Shown piece by piece: positions 3,342-59,291 of a stretch of 64,000 nucleotides of DNA (position 1 is its first letter; each line of letters starts with the position of its first letter). Made by a program: the position numbers and the translations under genes. The notes under the pieces were generated by a model that saw only the letters and a list, made by a program, of their open reading frames with translations, made no database searches and had not been told where the DNA came from. Source of the DNA: Nonlabens marinus S1-08. Its GTDB lineage: Bacteria; Bacteroidota; Bacteroidia; Flavobacteriales; Flavobacteriaceae. The stretch is from positions 1,054,001-1,118,000 of the forward strand of contig NZ_AP014548.1 of the NCBI RefSeq assembly GCF_000831385.1, given 5' to 3'.

Positions 3342-4106
3342 TTATTTTACGAATTCTTCAACTAGTTTGTTAAACTCCTCCGGTTTCTCTGCATGTAGCC
3401 AGTGTCCTGCATTGGGAATGGTGCGAAGTTCCGCTTTCGCGAAAGCGTAATCAATAGCAGGTTTATCAGCATCTAGAATGTATCCAGAATTGCCGCCACG
3501 TATGAATAAGGTCGGGATGGTAATAGGTTTATCGATAGCATCGTGCATACCTACATTAGACTGTGCTACGGCTAATGCTGGCAAATTGAACCGCCAGTCG
3601 TAGGTGTTTTTAGATTTTCTATAAAGGCTTTTTAATAAAAACTGGCGTGTACCGAAATCCTTGATTCCCTTTTCCAGGGACTCGTCCGCATCGCTCCGAG
3701 ATTTCAAGTTTTCTAGATTCACCGCCTGTAGGGCGTGGATGATATCGCTGTGATGTGGCGGGTACGCTTTTGGAGCAATGTCTGCGATAATCAGCTTATC
3801 GATAAGCTCTGGAAACAAAACGGCACAGCGCATAGCCACCTTTCCACCCATACTGTGCCCTAATAGTATGATGTTGTCTAGTTGATGCTCTTCGCAATAA
3901 TCTTTGACATCTTGAGCCATCTGATTGTAGTCAAATCCATCGGAATGAAAACTACGTCCATGGTTGCGTTGATCTAACAAGTGGACTTGAAACCCATCCT
4001 CGCTCCATTGGGTTCCTAAGGTTTTCCAGTTGTCTGCCATTCCTAAAAACCCATGGAGGATAACGAAGGGTTGTCCTTCTCCTAAAATGATACTGTGAAG
4101 AATCAT
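3342..4106 (-). CDS. Alpha/beta-hydrolase (YbfF-like esterase)
   Basis: A 254-residue cytoplasmic alpha/beta hydrolase. It shows the oxyanion motif HGFLGMADNW near residue 18, the nucleophile elbow GHSMGG around residue 82, and the catalytic His in NAGHWLHAEKPEEF near the C-terminus. DQRNHGRS is typical of the YbfF esterase group. The start ATG overlaps the pdxJ stop by 4 bases, so the two are translationally coupled. A copy of the 16-bp palindrome lies inside the gene and encodes AFAKA (about residues 221-225), just before the catalytic-His strand. Natural substrate not predictable. Confidence 0.85.
   Translation of the reverse strand: MILHSIILGEGQPFVILHGFLGMADNWKTLGTQWSEDGFQVHLLDQRNHGRSFHSDGFDYNQMAQDVKDYCEEHQLDNIILLGHSMGGKVAMRCAVLFPELIDKLIIADIAPKAYPPHHSDIIHALQAVNLENLKSRSDADESLEKGIKDFGTRQFLLKSLYRKSKNTYDWRFNLPALAVAQSNVGMHDAIDKPITIPTLFIRGGNSGYILDADKPAIDYAFAKAELRTIPNAGHWLHAEKPEEFNKLVEEFVK
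3432..3447. repeat. 16-bp palindrome CGCTTTCGCGAAAGCG, copy 1
   Basis: Exact copy inside the alpha/beta-hydrolase gene, read as AFAKA. Confidence 0.97.
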
Positions 4107-4816
4107 GACAAGCGGTGTTTGTACATATTAACCACATTTTCTAAGCCTAAATAGAGGCTTTCTGCAATTAAAGCATGCCCTATGCTTACTTCTTTTAGGT
4201 CTGTTAGTTTCTCGTTGAAGTATTGAATGTTTTCTAGGGAAAGATCATGGCCAGCGTTTATGCCCAGATCTAATTCCGTCGCTTTATGAGCTGCCTTTAT
4301 ATAAGGAGCAATTGCTTTCTCTTTATTATCCGTGTATTGTCTGGCATAATCTTCCGTATACAACTCTATCCGGTCCACGCCTGTTGCTGCAGCGCCTGTA
4401 ATCATAGCTTCTACTGGATCTACAAAGATGCTGGTACGTATACCTTGATTTTTAAAATGGGCTACTATTTCTTTCAGGTAATCGGCGTGCTTGATCGTGT
4501 CCCAGCCGGCATTGGAAGTAATGGCATCAGGAGCATCTGGAACCAGCGTGACTTGTGCCGGCTTGACTTCATCGACTAGAGCAATAAAGCTATCTATAGG
4601 ATTACCTTCAATATTCAGCTCTGTAGTCACTATTTTTTTTAGGTCGCGTGCATCTTGATATTTGATGTGACGCTCATCTGGACGTGGGTGAATGGTAATT
4701 CCTTGGGCGCCAAAACGCTCTAAATCCATAGCAACTTTTAATAGATCTGGAACATTTCCTCCACGAGAGTTGCGCAATGTGGCAATCTTATTGATGTTTA
4801 CGCTTAGAATAGCCAT
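4103..4816 (-). CDS. pdxJ: Pyridoxine 5'-phosphate synthase
   Basis: A 237-residue TIM-barrel enzyme that condenses 1-deoxy-D-xylulose 5-phosphate with 3-amino-2-oxopropyl phosphate to make pyridoxine 5'-phosphate, the last ring-closing step of DXP-dependent vitamin B6 synthesis. Hallmarks: LSVNINKIATLRNSRGG at the N-terminus, ITIHPRPDERHI, VTLVPD, and INAGHDLSLENI near the C-terminus. The ATG at 4814-4816 gives the usual family N-terminus; an in-frame TTG 21 bases upstream is less likely. The DXP supply enzyme Dxs is encoded elsewhere in the window (46.7 kb). The 3' end overlaps the downstream esterase. Confidence 0.95.
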   Translation of the reverse strand: MAILSVNINKIATLRNSRGGNVPDLLKVAMDLERFGAQGITIHPRPDERHIKYQDARDLKKIVTTELNIEGNPIDSFIALVDEVKPAQVTLVPDAPDAITSNAGWDTIKHADYLKEIVAHFKNQGIRTSIFVDPVEAMITGAAATGVDRIELYTEDYARQYTDNKEKAIAPYIKAAHKATELDLGINAGHDLSLENIQYFNEKLTDLKEVSIGHALIAESLYLGLENVVNMYKHRLS

Positions 4817-4907
4817 AGGGTTTGTTTGAGTAACCAAAAATACAAACTAAGGCTTCAAGCTATAAGTAGAGAATTGATTAATTTGCAGGAAAAGTAAGTA
4901 AGTAAGG

Positions 4908-56996: not shown

Positions 56997-59261
56997 ATGG
57001 GAGACATTTATATCTACATGCTCATTATCCTAGCGGGTCTGGCGATTACAGACTTAGTTGTTGGGGTTAGTAATGACGCGGTAAACTTCTTAAATAGTGC
57101 CATAGGGTCTAAGGCCATCAGCTTTAAAACCATCATGATCATTGCGAGTTTAGGTATCGCATTGGGAGCGCTCTCCAGCAGCGGTATGATGGAAGTTGCG
57201 CGTAAGGGGATTTTCAATCCAGGCGAATTCTATTTTGACGAGATCATGATTATTTTCATGGCGGTGATGATCACTGATGTATTGCTTCTGGACTTTTTCA
57301 ATAGTCTGGGGTTGCCTACCTCTACCACGGTTTCCATTGTTTTTGAATTGCTAGGGGCTGCGGTGTGTGTTTCTTTATTGAAAATAGGAGAAAGCGAGAC
57401 AGAAACATTTCTTGACTTGGGTAGATATATCGCCAGTGAGACGGCCATAGAGATTGTGACCGGTATCTTGCTTTCTGTGGTTATTGCATTTACCATTGGG
57501 GCGCTGGTTCAATTCCTTTCCCGTTTGATGTTGACCTTCAATTATAGAAAACGCCCAGCATTCCTTGCAGGGATTTTTGGAGGATTGTCGCTCACCAGTT
57601 TGTACTATTTTATTATCGTTAAAGGATTAAAGGGCGCTGATCTAGGCGGGCTGAATTTCATATTTGAATACACCACAAACGTTTACACCACTCTTGGGTA
57701 CGGTTTTATTTTCTGGATCATTTTCAGTTTGATATATGTTTATGTGTTGAAGTGGGATATTTATAAATTGATCATTATTCTAGGGACATTTGGTCTTGCT
57801 ATGGCTTTTGCGGGAAATGACTTAGTCAACTTCATTGGGGTGCCTATAGGTGCTTATGATGCTTATAATATCTGGATGGATGCTGGAGCTGTAGAAGGGT
57901 TTAGAATGGATGCCCTAGGTGGTAAATTACCTAGTCAAAAATGGCTCTTAATCCTTGCAGGTGTCGTAATGATTTTGACGCTTTGGTTTTCTTCTAAGGC
58001 GCAAGCGGTGGTTAAGACATCAGTTGATCTAGCACGCCAGGATAGCGGTATAGAACGCTTTAAAGCTAATTTCCTCTCTAGGTATTTGGTGCGTTATTCG
58101 ATCATGACAGCAGATGGTATTCAGCGCGTCATGCCTAAAAGCGCTACAAATTATATCTCTAAACGATTTGAAAAAGTACCCTCGTTAGGACTAGTTACTA
58201 AAAATGCAGATAAGCCTGCTTTTGATTACGTACGTGCTTCAGTAAATCTAATGGTGGCTAGTGTGTTGATCTCTGTAGCCACTTCTTATAAGTTGCCATT
58301 ATCTACCACATATGTCACGTTTATGGTAGCGATGGGAACCTCGTTAGCAGATCGTGCCTGGGGAACTGAAAGCGCGGTTTACCGTATTGCGGGAGTTTTG
58401 AATGTGATAGGTGGTTGGTTTTTTACCGCTTTTAGTGCATTTACTGCGGCTGCGATTTTTGCCTATATCATTTATTTGGGTGGTTTTTATGCGATCATAG
58501 GTCTAGTCGTTCTGGCTGTAGTGCTTATTACTCGCAGTTTCATCATGCACAAACGTTCACAAACTGAGCAAAAGATCACTGACGAGCTTCACAAAGCAGA
58601 AAGTAAGACCATTCAAGGAATCATCGAGGAAAGTTCTGATACAGTAGCTACGGTATTCAAGAGGTCTAAAAACATGTATTCCAAAACCCTAGAAGGTTTG
58701 ATCAATCAAGATTTGAGCGCTTTGAAATCTGCTCGTAAAGACAGTAAGAAACTAGGGGTTGAGGTAGATGCCTTGCGTAACAATATATACTTTTTCATTA
58801 GAAATCTAGATGAACAAACTATAGGAGCAAGTAAATTTTATATAGACGTTTTGGGCCACCTACAGGATATTTCTCAATCGCTCGAGTACATCTCTAGATC
58901 CAGTACAGACCACATTAATAATAATCATAAGAGCCTGAAATTTACTCAAATCAAGGATCTGAAAGAAATCATCAATCGCATTCATGATATTTTTGAAGAA
59001 TCTGAAAATGTGTTTAAAAACAAGGACTTTATCAGGTTAGAGTCCATCATTAGTAAAAAACGAGAGTTGCTAGAACTGGTGGATAGCAAAATTGAAAAGC
59101 AAGTAAAACGCACTAAGAATACGGACGAATCTCCTAAGAATACGACCTTATACTTCGGTCTATTGCTAGAAACCCGTGATCTGATGAATACGACTACTCA
59201 AGTTGCAGAACAGTATTTCACAGAGTATGATTCTAATCAATTTGATACTGAGAGTGAGTAA
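56997..59261 (+). CDS. PiT-family inorganic phosphate transporter with fused PhoU-like domain
   Basis: A 754-residue protein. Residues 1-520 carry ten or more membrane segments with the two inverted PiT signatures: VGVSNDAVNFLNSAIGSKA near residue 22 and FAGNDLVNFIGVPIGAY near 276. The C-terminal 220 residues (from KITDELHKAESKTI) are soluble, helical and PhoU-like (DLSALKSARKDSKKLGVEVD; LESIISKKRELLELVD). It imports phosphate, and the fused domain may gate transport or signal. The full-length fusion is common in Bacteroidota. Confidence 0.92.
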   Translation: MGDIYIYMLIILAGLAITDLVVGVSNDAVNFLNSAIGSKAISFKTIMIIASLGIALGALSSSGMMEVARKGIFNPGEFYFDEIMIIFMAVMITDVLLLDFFNSLGLPTSTTVSIVFELLGAAVCVSLLKIGESETETFLDLGRYIASETAIEIVTGILLSVVIAFTIGALVQFLSRLMLTFNYRKRPAFLAGIFGGLSLTSLYYFIIVKGLKGADLGGLNFIFEYTTNVYTTLGYGFIFWIIFSLIYVYVLKWDIYKLIIILGTFGLAMAFAGNDLVNFIGVPIGAYDAYNIWMDAGAVEGFRMDALGGKLPSQKWLLILAGVVMILTLWFSSKAQAVVKTSVDLARQDSGIERFKANFLSRYLVRYSIMTADGIQRVMPKSATNYISKRFEKVPSLGLVTKNADKPAFDYVRASVNLMVASVLISVATSYKLPLSTTYVTFMVAMGTSLADRAWGTESAVYRIAGVLNVIGGWFFTAFSAFTAAAIFAYIIYLGGFYAIIGLVVLAVVLITRSFIMHKRSQTEQKITDELHKAESKTIQGIIEESSDTVATVFKRSKNMYSKTLEGLINQDLSALKSARKDSKKLGVEVDALRNNIYFFIRNLDEQTIGASKFYIDVLGHLQDISQSLEYISRSSTDHINNNHKSLKFTQIKDLKEIINRIHDIFEESENVFKNKDFIRLESIISKKRELLELVDSKIEKQVKRTKNTDESPKNTTLYFGLLLETRDLMNTTTQVAEQYFTEYDSNQFDTESE

Positions 59262-59275
59262 TTCTTAAAAGAGTT

Positions 59276-59291
59276 CGCTTTCGCGAAAGCG
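59276..59291. repeat. 16-bp palindrome, copy 17
   Basis: Exact copy just after the PiT stop codon, before the terminator. Confidence 0.97.

What the first reader, a model, noticed from the sequence alone, without database searches (positions are those of the whole stretch)
3432..59291. A 16-bp perfect palindrome repeated across coding and non-coding DNA in all three frames
Direct observation: CGCTTTCGCGAAAGCG occurs exactly at 3432, 6581, 10631, 17911, 19146, 21868, 25008, 29733, 36177, 37554, 38850, 42521, 44980, 46731, 48302, 56859 and 59276, with degenerate copies at 13378, 28050, 32839 and 52213. That is about one per 3-4 kb, far above chance for a 16-mer. Most exact copies lie inside genes, giving AFAKA, RFRES or LSRK depending on frame; the rest lie between genes. 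Perfect conservation of both arms inside unrelated proteins means the DNA, not the peptide, is under selection or is spreading. Possible roles: binding site of a chromosome-organising or segregation protein, DNA-uptake or methylation signal, or a mobile palindrome comparable to, but shorter than, Rickettsia palindromic elements.
Basis: seen in the sequence. Interest (0 to 1): 0.93.

Follow-up and report, generated by a model that had tools for sequence, protein, structure and literature searches.

The report
Genome-wide palindromic DNA address in Nonlabens
Certain marine bacteria carry one identical short palindrome hundreds of times, evenly spread along the chromosome and strong enough to rewrite parts of their proteins; it behaves like a label by which the cell could recognise its own DNA, but the protein that reads it is unknown.

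Summary
In detail: CGCTTTCGCGAAAGCG occurs 17 times in the window (0 in shuffles) and 653 times in the 2.92-Mb genome, a Nonlabens. It is abundant in all 23 Nonlabens genomes held, in all 18 of a second genus, probably Dokdonia, and in one further genome; the rest of 397 family genomes have 0-13. The unit is a 14-bp core plus a variable outer pair and about 18 bp of G-poor flank on each side. Sites are unusually evenly spaced and 4-fold enriched between genes. Orthologous cores are 94-99% identical per column. Sites arise by replacement in place; in AspRS one overwrote a conserved peptide. Short sub-motifs are not enriched, and no unit insertions were seen, so neither a methylation word nor a mobile palindrome fits. 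Two Nonlabens phages lack it; integrase-bearing phages and one island carry it. Best reading: a double-strand-recognised self-DNA signal that works like DNA uptake sequences, the first palindromic one I know of. Main rival: a chromosome-wide intracellular binding protein. The reader protein was not found; uptake was not tested.

The parts
3432..3447 (.). exact site, in ORF 3342-4106(-)
6581..6596 (.). exact site, in porG-like ORF 6480-7232(+)
10631..10646 (.). exact site, in OmpH/Skp-like ORF 10581-11426(+)
13378..13393 (.). degenerate copy with broken right arm (CGCTTTCGCGAAATAT)
17911..17926 (.). exact site, intergenic
19146..19161 (.). exact site, in MBL-fold/rhodanese ORF 17943-19271(-)
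21868..21883 (.). exact site, intergenic; edge of about 120 bp shared with the left flank of 25008
25008..25023 (.). exact site, in DUF4130 / TIGR03915 putative DNA-repair ORF 24877-25662(-)
28048..28063 (.). degenerate copy, 2 mismatches (reader gave 28050)
29733..29748 (.). exact site, in DNA polymerase III alpha-type ORF 26989-30168(-)
32839..32854 (.). degenerate copy, 1 mismatch (inside the 14-bp core)
36177..36192 (.). exact site, in ORF 35378-36355(-) with a CarboxypepD_reg-like stretch just under the Pfam cut-off
37554..37569 (.). exact site, in Kdo-transferase ORF 36330-37604(-); in one orthologue (L204) AFAKA is encoded by other codons
38850..38865 (.). exact site, intergenic
42521..42536 (.). 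exact site, intergenic; flanks extend it to a 42-bp perfect palindrome (42508-42549)
44980..44995 (.). exact site in aspS (AspRS); present at this position in all 20 other Nonlabens stretches examined (19 exact, 1 with one mismatch), absent from 77 outgroup loci, L125 (Dokdonia MAG), L314 (g225) and L311 (g209)
46731..46746 (.). exact site in dxs; exact in 5 of 10 aligned orthologues, unrelated sequence in the other 5
48302..48317 (.). exact site in dxs; also exact in the Dokdonia MAG (L125) and in g225 (L314)
52213..52228 (.). 1-mismatch site (outer base T) in dGTPase ORF 51327-52658(-); the T is kept in all 11 aligned orthologues
56859..56874 (.). exact site, intergenic
59276..59291 (.). exact site, intergenic (convergent genes)

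Best explanation
The element is a short DNA address read as double strand by an as yet unknown protein. It consists of an invariant 14-bp palindromic core, an outer base pair and +1 base that differ between lineages, and about 18 bp (weakly to 25) of flank on each side that avoids G reading outward, roughly 50-65 bp in all. It is kept at hundreds of evenly spaced chromosomal positions by a force acting on the DNA. Shown here: the architecture, the spacing, the conservation, birth in place, the dialects, and some of the replicons that do and do not carry it. Inferred: that the force is a transmission advantage, i.e. fragments carrying the site are preferentially taken up and/or used as 'self' DNA in homologous exchange, as with the uptake signals of Haemophilus (USS) and Neisseria (DUS). 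Such a drive would explain why each of about 700 redundant sites is individually kept near-perfect.
For: Abundant in all 23 Nonlabens and all 18 g225 genomes. Spacing: 2 of 99 gaps under 1 kb against 21 expected, CV 0.61 against 0.98; few short gaps also in G439, G234, G004. 18 samples of 20 kb along the chromosome: 2-6 sites, variance/mean 0.28. 59 of 95 sites in ORFs, 36 intergenic; PMC1939737 (passages) gives 65% in ORFs for H. influenzae, noncoding excess, and cites Karlin for even spacing. Core columns 94-99% identical, flank columns 56-98%; PMC2397512 (abstract and passages): DUS 97% against about 85%, births often too divergent for point mutation. Births in register. Weak extended flanks, as USS has AT-rich flanks (PMC7811141, passages). 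Dialects. No site in two Nonlabens phages or in 15 kb of a 29-kb Mob_Pre contig. [quoted passage not shown]
Against: PMC1939737 says known uptake sequences are not palindromes; a palindrome more naturally means an intracellular dimeric binder. The same paper's discussion calls USS/DUS less even than a compaction role would need. No paper in the library holds 'Nonlabens' with 'natural competence'; competence genes were not tested. Integrase-bearing phages (39 sites in 441.6 kb over 20 records, all chosen for holding a site) and a 78-kb island in another genus (16 sites) carry sites with the flank signature, whereas DUS are reported absent from recently acquired genes. A restriction-type gene cluster that looked site-free has a 2-mismatch copy and two outer-variant sites close by, so it is not evidence of exclusion. 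The reader protein is unknown.
Confidence: 0.45

Rival explanations
1. Chromosome-wide binding site of an intracellular dimeric or polymerising protein (nucleoid, condensin-loading, topoisomerase or segregation factor). The protein organises DNA every few kb, so gaps are selected against and close pairs bring no gain.
For: Perfect palindrome with a symmetric footprint of about 50-65 bp; few short gaps; even density along the chromosome; no site in two Nonlabens phages or in 15 kb of one Mob_Pre contig.
Against: Loss of one of about 700 redundant sites should be nearly neutral, yet copies are near-invariant; this is an argument, not a test. Phage genomes carry the same extended sites. No ori- or ter-like trend in 18 samples. 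A Noc-like extra ParB is not genus-wide: a second PF17762 match in only 3 of 23 Nonlabens (g225 and g209 were not in that search).
Confidence: 0.3
2. A palindromic Chi-like recombination control site, read by AddAB or another end-processing enzyme from either direction. On each strand the flank 5' of the core is G/T-rich and C-poor, the kind of sequence RecA is recalled to prefer.
For: Density of one per 4.5 kb, close to E. coli Chi (1008 in about 4.64 Mb, table in PMC1939737); keto-rich 5' flank on both strands; an AddB/RecB-type PF12705 nuclease protein in 39 of 39 genomes, with a second match in 32 of 39.
Against: That nuclease is equally present in site-free genera, and the AddB tree neither requires nor excludes a single origin of the label (one side of a branch in 41% of bootstrap trees). 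Known Chi sites are short and asymmetric (recalled). The core is long and kept as a whole.
Confidence: 0.1
3. A highly iterated palindrome tied to a DNA methyltransferase or restriction system, like HIP1 of cyanobacteria.
For: Palindromic, iterated, in genes; contains TCGCGA.
Against: Short sub-motifs are not enriched outside whole sites: TCGCGA 47 against 45.0 expected, TTCGCGAA 5 against 5.2; CTTTCG and CGAAAG are even below (57 and 51 against 84.0 and 84.6). 14 bp plus flanks exceeds known methyltransferase sites (recalled).
Confidence: 0.05
4. A mobile or copying palindromic element (RPE- or REP-like).
For: Hundreds of identical copies, many inside genes; one copy marks the edge of a duplicated segment; a few sites carry a nested palindromic insert.
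Against: In dxs, kdtA, ORF 35378-36355 and aspS, orthologues without the site differ at 8-12 of 16 bases (aspS outgroups 6-10) with little or no length change. Of the 75 gapped or divergent pairs, 60 were printed and none is a clean insertion, though several intergenic ones are too gapped to judge. Two close species share 7 of 7 intact sites in about 25.5 aligned kb. No shared flanks between own copies apart from one duplication. One-mismatch products other than at the outer pair are rare.
Confidence: 0.04
5. A transcription-factor site, promoter element or terminator.
For: 36 of 95 sites intergenic; in tandem gaps they lie near the upstream stop (median 27.5 nt against 82 nt to the next start).
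Against: 59 of 95 are in ORFs; density is lowest in divergent gaps (5 in 8,590 bp) against convergent (5 in 5,026 bp) and tandem gaps (26 in 25,859 bp); the sequence 3' of the core is A-rich, not a T-run.
Confidence: 0.03

Closest known systems
USS of Haemophilus influenzae / DUS of Neisseria (DNA uptake sequences)
   Same: Hundreds of copies; reported even spacing; in H. influenzae a majority in ORFs with noncoding excess; stricter conservation than flanks; births in place; weak extended flanks (passages). Dialects of DUS are known to me from recall and from a title in a reference list.
   Different: Palindromic, longer core, lower density (one per about 4-4.5 kb); carried by integrase-bearing phages and an island; no receptor or competence shown.
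HIP1 (GCGATCGC) of cyanobacteria
   Same: Iterated palindrome throughout genes of a bacterial group.
   Different: HIP1 contains methyltransferase sites (start of abstract); here no short sub-motif is enriched by itself, the core is 14 bp with long flanks and even spacing.
Noc/ParB/MatP-type chromosome binding sites
   Same: Palindromic chromosomal sites for a dimeric protein (recalled).
   Different: Far more sites than recalled for Noc or MatP, no regional bias in 18 samples, no extra ParB paralogue genus-wide in Nonlabens.
Rickettsia palindromic elements / REP
   Same: Palindromes, some inside genes (recalled).
   Different: No insertion signature seen; core only 14-16 bp; flanks show a composition preference, not shared sequence.
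Chi sites
   Same: Density and G/T-rich strand bias.
   Different: Chi is short and asymmetric (recalled).

Membership tests
DNA uptake sequence (DUS/USS) | Strong genome-wide over-representation of an exact short word | tested here: met
   653 in 2.92 Mb, reversed control 0
DNA uptake sequence (DUS/USS) | More conserved than surrounding sequence at orthologous positions | tested here: met
   94-99% per core column against 56-98% per flank column, 546 ungapped of 694 pairs, not independent
DNA uptake sequence (DUS/USS) | Arises in place, not by insertion | tested here: met
   for the sites of the aspS region
DNA uptake sequence (DUS/USS) | Poor in recently acquired DNA and phages | tested here: inconclusive
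   Absent from 2 Nonlabens phages and 15 kb of a Mob_Pre contig; present in integrase-bearing phages and a 78-kb island; the restriction-type cluster is not informative
DNA uptake sequence (DUS/USS) | Enhances uptake of DNA by competent cells | not testable with these tools
   needs a transformation or uptake assay
DNA uptake sequence (DUS/USS) | Not a palindrome (the known ones) | tested here: not met
   The site is a perfect palindrome; PMC1939737 states DUES are not palindromes. So it is filed as 'works like', not as a member.
HIP1-type iterated palindrome | Contains a methyltransferase sub-site over-represented or modified in its own right | tested here: not met
   TCGCGA 47 against 45.0, TTCGCGAA 5 against 5.2 outside sites; modification itself not testable
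Mobile palindrome (RPE/REP) | Insertion of a unit, visible as a length difference | tested here: not met
   some intergenic alignments too gapped to judge
ParB/Noc site | A cognate ParB-family protein, regional distribution | tested here: not met
   PF17762: one strong match per Nonlabens genome, a further one in 3 of 23; even density in 18 samples
Chi site | Recognised by RecBCD/AddAB, attenuating exonuclease | not testable with these tools
Regulon site / terminator | Concentrated at promoters, or hairpin followed by a T-run | tested here: not met
   gap classes; A-rich 3' flank

The most novel reading that the evidence does not exclude
A self-DNA recognition system of Bacteroidota in which a dimeric receptor, unrelated to the known uptake receptors, reads a palindromic core with two 18-25-bp flanks. 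It drives the site into core proteins, has split into lineage dialects, and has been adopted by temperate phages and transferable islands as a passport.
Probability: 0.3. Interest if true: 0.88.

Novelty: new variant of a known kind. Interest (0 to 1): 0.78.

Why it matters
Uptake signals are the classic case of a DNA word spreading through a genome against protein constraint. I know of them only in Pasteurellaceae and Neisseriaceae. A palindromic analogue in marine flavobacteria would make selection against drive testable, point to a new DNA-reading protein, and give a marker of gene flow between these bacteria, their prophages and their islands.

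Tried and rejected
Rejected: chance; methylation or restriction word; hairpin or RNA element, because left-right complementarity of the flanks is no higher than their composition predicts at nearly all of the 20 positions tested; ParB/Noc paralogue in Nonlabens; insertion element; promoter or terminator. 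A defence 'self mark' that destroys site-free DNA is disfavoured because two phages of a Nonlabens host have no site.

Led nowhere: plasmid collection (6 partial Vibrio matches at E 5 for one query, none for the other); phage collection (two Mycobacterium matches at E 8, chance level); other iterated palindromes in 80 aspS-region loci (only AT-rich pairs outside Nonlabens and the Dokdonia MAG); AddB tree as a test of a Chi origin (indecisive); the AspRS tree does not resolve whether the bearing genera are sisters. HIP1 paper: a search for six terms, none found, plus the start of its abstract in a listing. PMC8022716: outline and abstract only. PMC5217627: term search, no flavobacterial or motif entry. 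Library searches for the 16-mer and the 14-mer found 0 papers; 7 papers hold 'Nonlabens' and 'palindrom' and 10 came up for Dokdonia/Nonlabens terms, of which I saw the listings only. Other notations, figures and subscription papers could be missed.

Against the all-or-none picture: outside whole sites the longer parts keep a small excess (GCGAAAGC 11 against 5.4, CGCGAAAGCG 3 against 0.2, TTTCGCGAAA 4 against 0.7), as degenerate copies would give; at four mismatches the motif is below its controls (11 against 22.7). A gap of about 16 kb between exact sites at 64-80 kb of the genome, which I first took for a site-free acquired cluster, contains two sites with a changed outer base and one 2-mismatch copy, leaving 11.9 kb without a near-perfect site. 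The overall spacing CV of G439 is not below random (936 of 5000).

Limits: gene calls are my own ORF heuristic, so intergenic fractions and the first-fifth-of-gene excess (23 of 59) carry start-codon error. Orthologue pairs share ancestry and are not independent; 148 of the 694 pairs were left out of the column count (gaps or truncation). Viral records were chosen because they hold the site, and several are close relatives. Own genome: about 0.55 Mb of 2.92 Mb read, overlaps included. G008:C2 was read for 15 of 29 kb, P12024L for 35,000 of 35,652 bases. That P12024S/L are lytic is recalled; their annotation lists no integrase.

Full report
WHAT WAS CHECKED. The window lies at 1,054,001-1,118,000 of a single 2,915,920-bp contig with 653 exact copies and none of the reversed control. 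AspRS places the genome in Nonlabens, Flavobacteriaceae. By recall its size fits N. marinus S1-08; that is not shown.

DISTRIBUTION. All 23 Nonlabens genomes held carry 180-737 exact 16-mers and 288-857 copies of the inner 14-mer GCTTTCGCGAAAGC. Of 397 family genomes sampled, 48 have at least one copy: 4 Nonlabens, G250 with 630, G234 with 153, and 42 others with 1-13. All 18 genomes of G250's genus (g225) have 138-711. In the AspRS tree G250 groups with a MAG labelled Dokdonia and one labelled Polaribacter, and its nearest nucleotide match in hand is the Dokdonia MAG, which itself has three exact sites and a one-mismatch site in 13 kb; so g225 is probably Dokdonia. G234 (g209) has 153 16-mers but 408 14-mers, and no second member of its genus was in the set. 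None of 23 genomes of the same order but other families has a copy. Low counts elsewhere often sit close together: in G120 all 16 14-mers lie within 78 kb of one contig, where the proteins I scanned are metal-efflux and AAA proteins (5 of 7 efflux or metal-related, 1 AAA, 1 without match), so it looks like a transferred island. Several low-count genomes repeat the same inter-site distances (933, 2,446-2,481 and 3,460 bp; read), as expected of related islands.

ANATOMY. In 424 kb of the own genome there are 91 exact 16-mers, 22 with one mismatch, 3 with two and 3 with three. The mean over 12 composition-matched control palindromes is 0, 0, 0 and 0.8; at four mismatches the motif has 11 against 22.7. 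Of 48 one-mismatch copies (own plus 20 Nonlabens stretches), 34 differ at the outermost pair and none at positions 3-5 of the half-site. Outside whole sites short parts are at or below expectation (TCGCGA 47 against 45.0, TTCGCGAA 5 against 5.2, CTTTCG 57 against 84.0), while longer parts keep a small excess (CGCGAAAGCG 3 against 0.2) that degenerate copies would give. The unit is therefore the whole 14-mer.

FLANKS. Reading outward in the own genome, G falls to 1-16% over 18 positions (background 20%; at most 10% from +2 to +12) and stays lowish to about +25, while A and C are raised; by symmetry C is avoided on the other side. This holds for intergenic and for coding copies, in Nonlabens and in g225. 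Complementarity of left and right arms does not exceed what composition gives, except at +1, so this is not a longer hairpin. In intergenic Nonlabens copies A peaks at +2/+3, +6, +9 and +12, with a weak rise at +23/+24; no clean helical period can be claimed. The base next to the 16-mer is mostly A in the own genome (66%) and T in g225 (63%), and mixed in other Nonlabens. The outer pair of the core is C-G in 91% of own half-sites but 67% in G022, whose 16-mer count (255) is far below its 14-mer count (634). I read these as dialects.

POSITION. The first 100 sites of the own genome have mean spacing 4.1 kb and CV 0.61, against 0.98 for random placement; 2 of 99 gaps are under 1 kb where 21 are expected. 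Short gaps are equally rare in G439 (2 against 18.4), G234 (0 against 12.5, 14-mers) and G004 (5 against 15.9, 14-mers), though the overall CV of G439 is not below random; it has one 38-kb gap. Eighteen 20-kb samples, about every 150 kb, hold 2-6 sites with variance/mean 0.28 and no visible trend. 36 of 95 own sites are intergenic where about 9.5% of the DNA is (p about 1e-13). In tandem gaps they lie close behind the upstream stop (median 27.5 nt against 82 nt to the next start). Two gaps of about 16 kb between exact sites were looked at. One holds secY, fusA and a run of short ORFs like a ribosomal-protein operon, and has no copy within two mismatches. The other holds restriction-type genes, but also two outer-variant sites and a 2-mismatch copy, which leaves 11.9 kb without a near-perfect site.

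EVOLUTION. Around aspS I compared 20 other Nonlabens stretches with the window. Among 694 non-independent pairs, 529 sites were identical, 90 differed by 1-2 bases, 7 by 3-5, 19 by 6 or more, and 49 were gapped. Identity is 94-99% at each of the 16 core columns and 56-98% in the 30 flank columns (546 ungapped pairs). The aspS site is present in all 20 stretches (19 exact, one with a single mismatch). In 77 outgroup loci, and in g225, g209 and the Dokdonia MAG, that place encodes an FGELNxVAQHKDF-type peptide with at least 6 mismatches to the site. In Nonlabens it became FGDISAFAKARDF without a length change. In dxs the site at 46731 is exact in 5 of 10 aligned orthologues; the other 5 have unrelated sequence of about equal length. 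The dxs site at 48302 is also exact in g225 and the Dokdonia MAG. In kdtA one species encodes AFAKA with other codons. Two close species (94-98% identity in the aligned pieces) share 7 of 7 intact sites in about 25.5 kb.

OTHER REPLICONS. Nonlabens phages P12024S and P12024L have no copy and no TCGCGA; by recall they are lytic. Half of a 29-kb contig with a Mob_Pre gene has none. In IMG/VR, 30 records hold 49 exact copies. Twenty of them, the ones I searched further, hold 39 copies in 441.6 kb; 11 of these 20 have two or more, and 6 of 20 encode a tyrosine integrase. That is one per 11.3 kb even though records were chosen for having a site, i.e. sparser than the host. The record with six copies has no PF00589 match but Mu/P2-like head and tail genes. 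Phage copies show the same G-poor flanks as host copies (52 sites, G 9% at +4..+18), though several records are close relatives. The other ten records have one copy each, mostly at higher G+C, and most may be chance.

MECHANISM. A palindrome with a long symmetric footprint, kept as a whole, points to a dimeric reader of double-stranded DNA. Each of about 700 redundant sites is nevertheless kept near-perfect, and sites override protein sequence. A global structural role explains this poorly; a transmission advantage of site-bearing DNA explains it well. Few short gaps, coding/noncoding balance, conservation, births by replacement, weak flanks and dialects match DNA uptake signals (PMC1939737, PMC2397512, PMC7811141; passages). 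[quoted passage not shown] I therefore put a self-DNA/uptake signal first (0.45). A chromosome-wide intracellular binder (0.3) and a palindromic Chi-like site (0.1) follow. The AddB/RecB-type nuclease is present in all 39 genomes searched, bearing and not, so its presence cannot explain the pattern. The reader protein was not found.

VERDICT. Real, DNA-level, old enough to be shared at one dxs position between genera, and not described in the papers reached by my searches. It works like an uptake or self-DNA signal but is not filed as one: it is palindromic and uptake is untested.

Noticed in passing
L189:7532, L190:4690 and 7523, L311 (dxs): A second palindromic insert of the type CTGCC..GGCAG sits in the middle of a few sites, splitting the core.
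   Followed up: partly
window 21748-21883 and 24888-25023: About 120 bp of left flank is shared by the two sites (3 mismatches) and the similarity stops at the palindrome, as if a partial copy of the DUF4130 gene ended at the site.
   Followed up: partly
window 30274-30394: Perfect heptamer array (CTCCTAA x 17) upstream of the DNA polymerase III alpha-type gene, next to an AAAAAC array at 30125-30171.
   Followed up: no
G120:C3, about 32-110 kb (L348-L352): Metal-efflux island with 16 sites in a genome that has none elsewhere: the sites mark the island's likely origin.
   Followed up: partly
G000:C1 about 64-76 kb (L218): Restriction-associated AAA ATPase and HsdM/MAD2-like genes in an 11.9-kb stretch with no near-perfect site.
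   Followed up: partly
G000:C1:1269375 (616-aa frame): A second, ~600-aa ParB-domain protein in only 3 of 23 Nonlabens genomes, possibly on a mobile element.
   Followed up: no
window 42508-42549: One intergenic site is extended to a 42-bp perfect palindrome.
   Followed up: partly
own genome, 424 kb sampled: Outside the sites CTTTCG and CGAAAG are below a second-order Markov expectation (57 and 51 against about 84).
   Followed up: no
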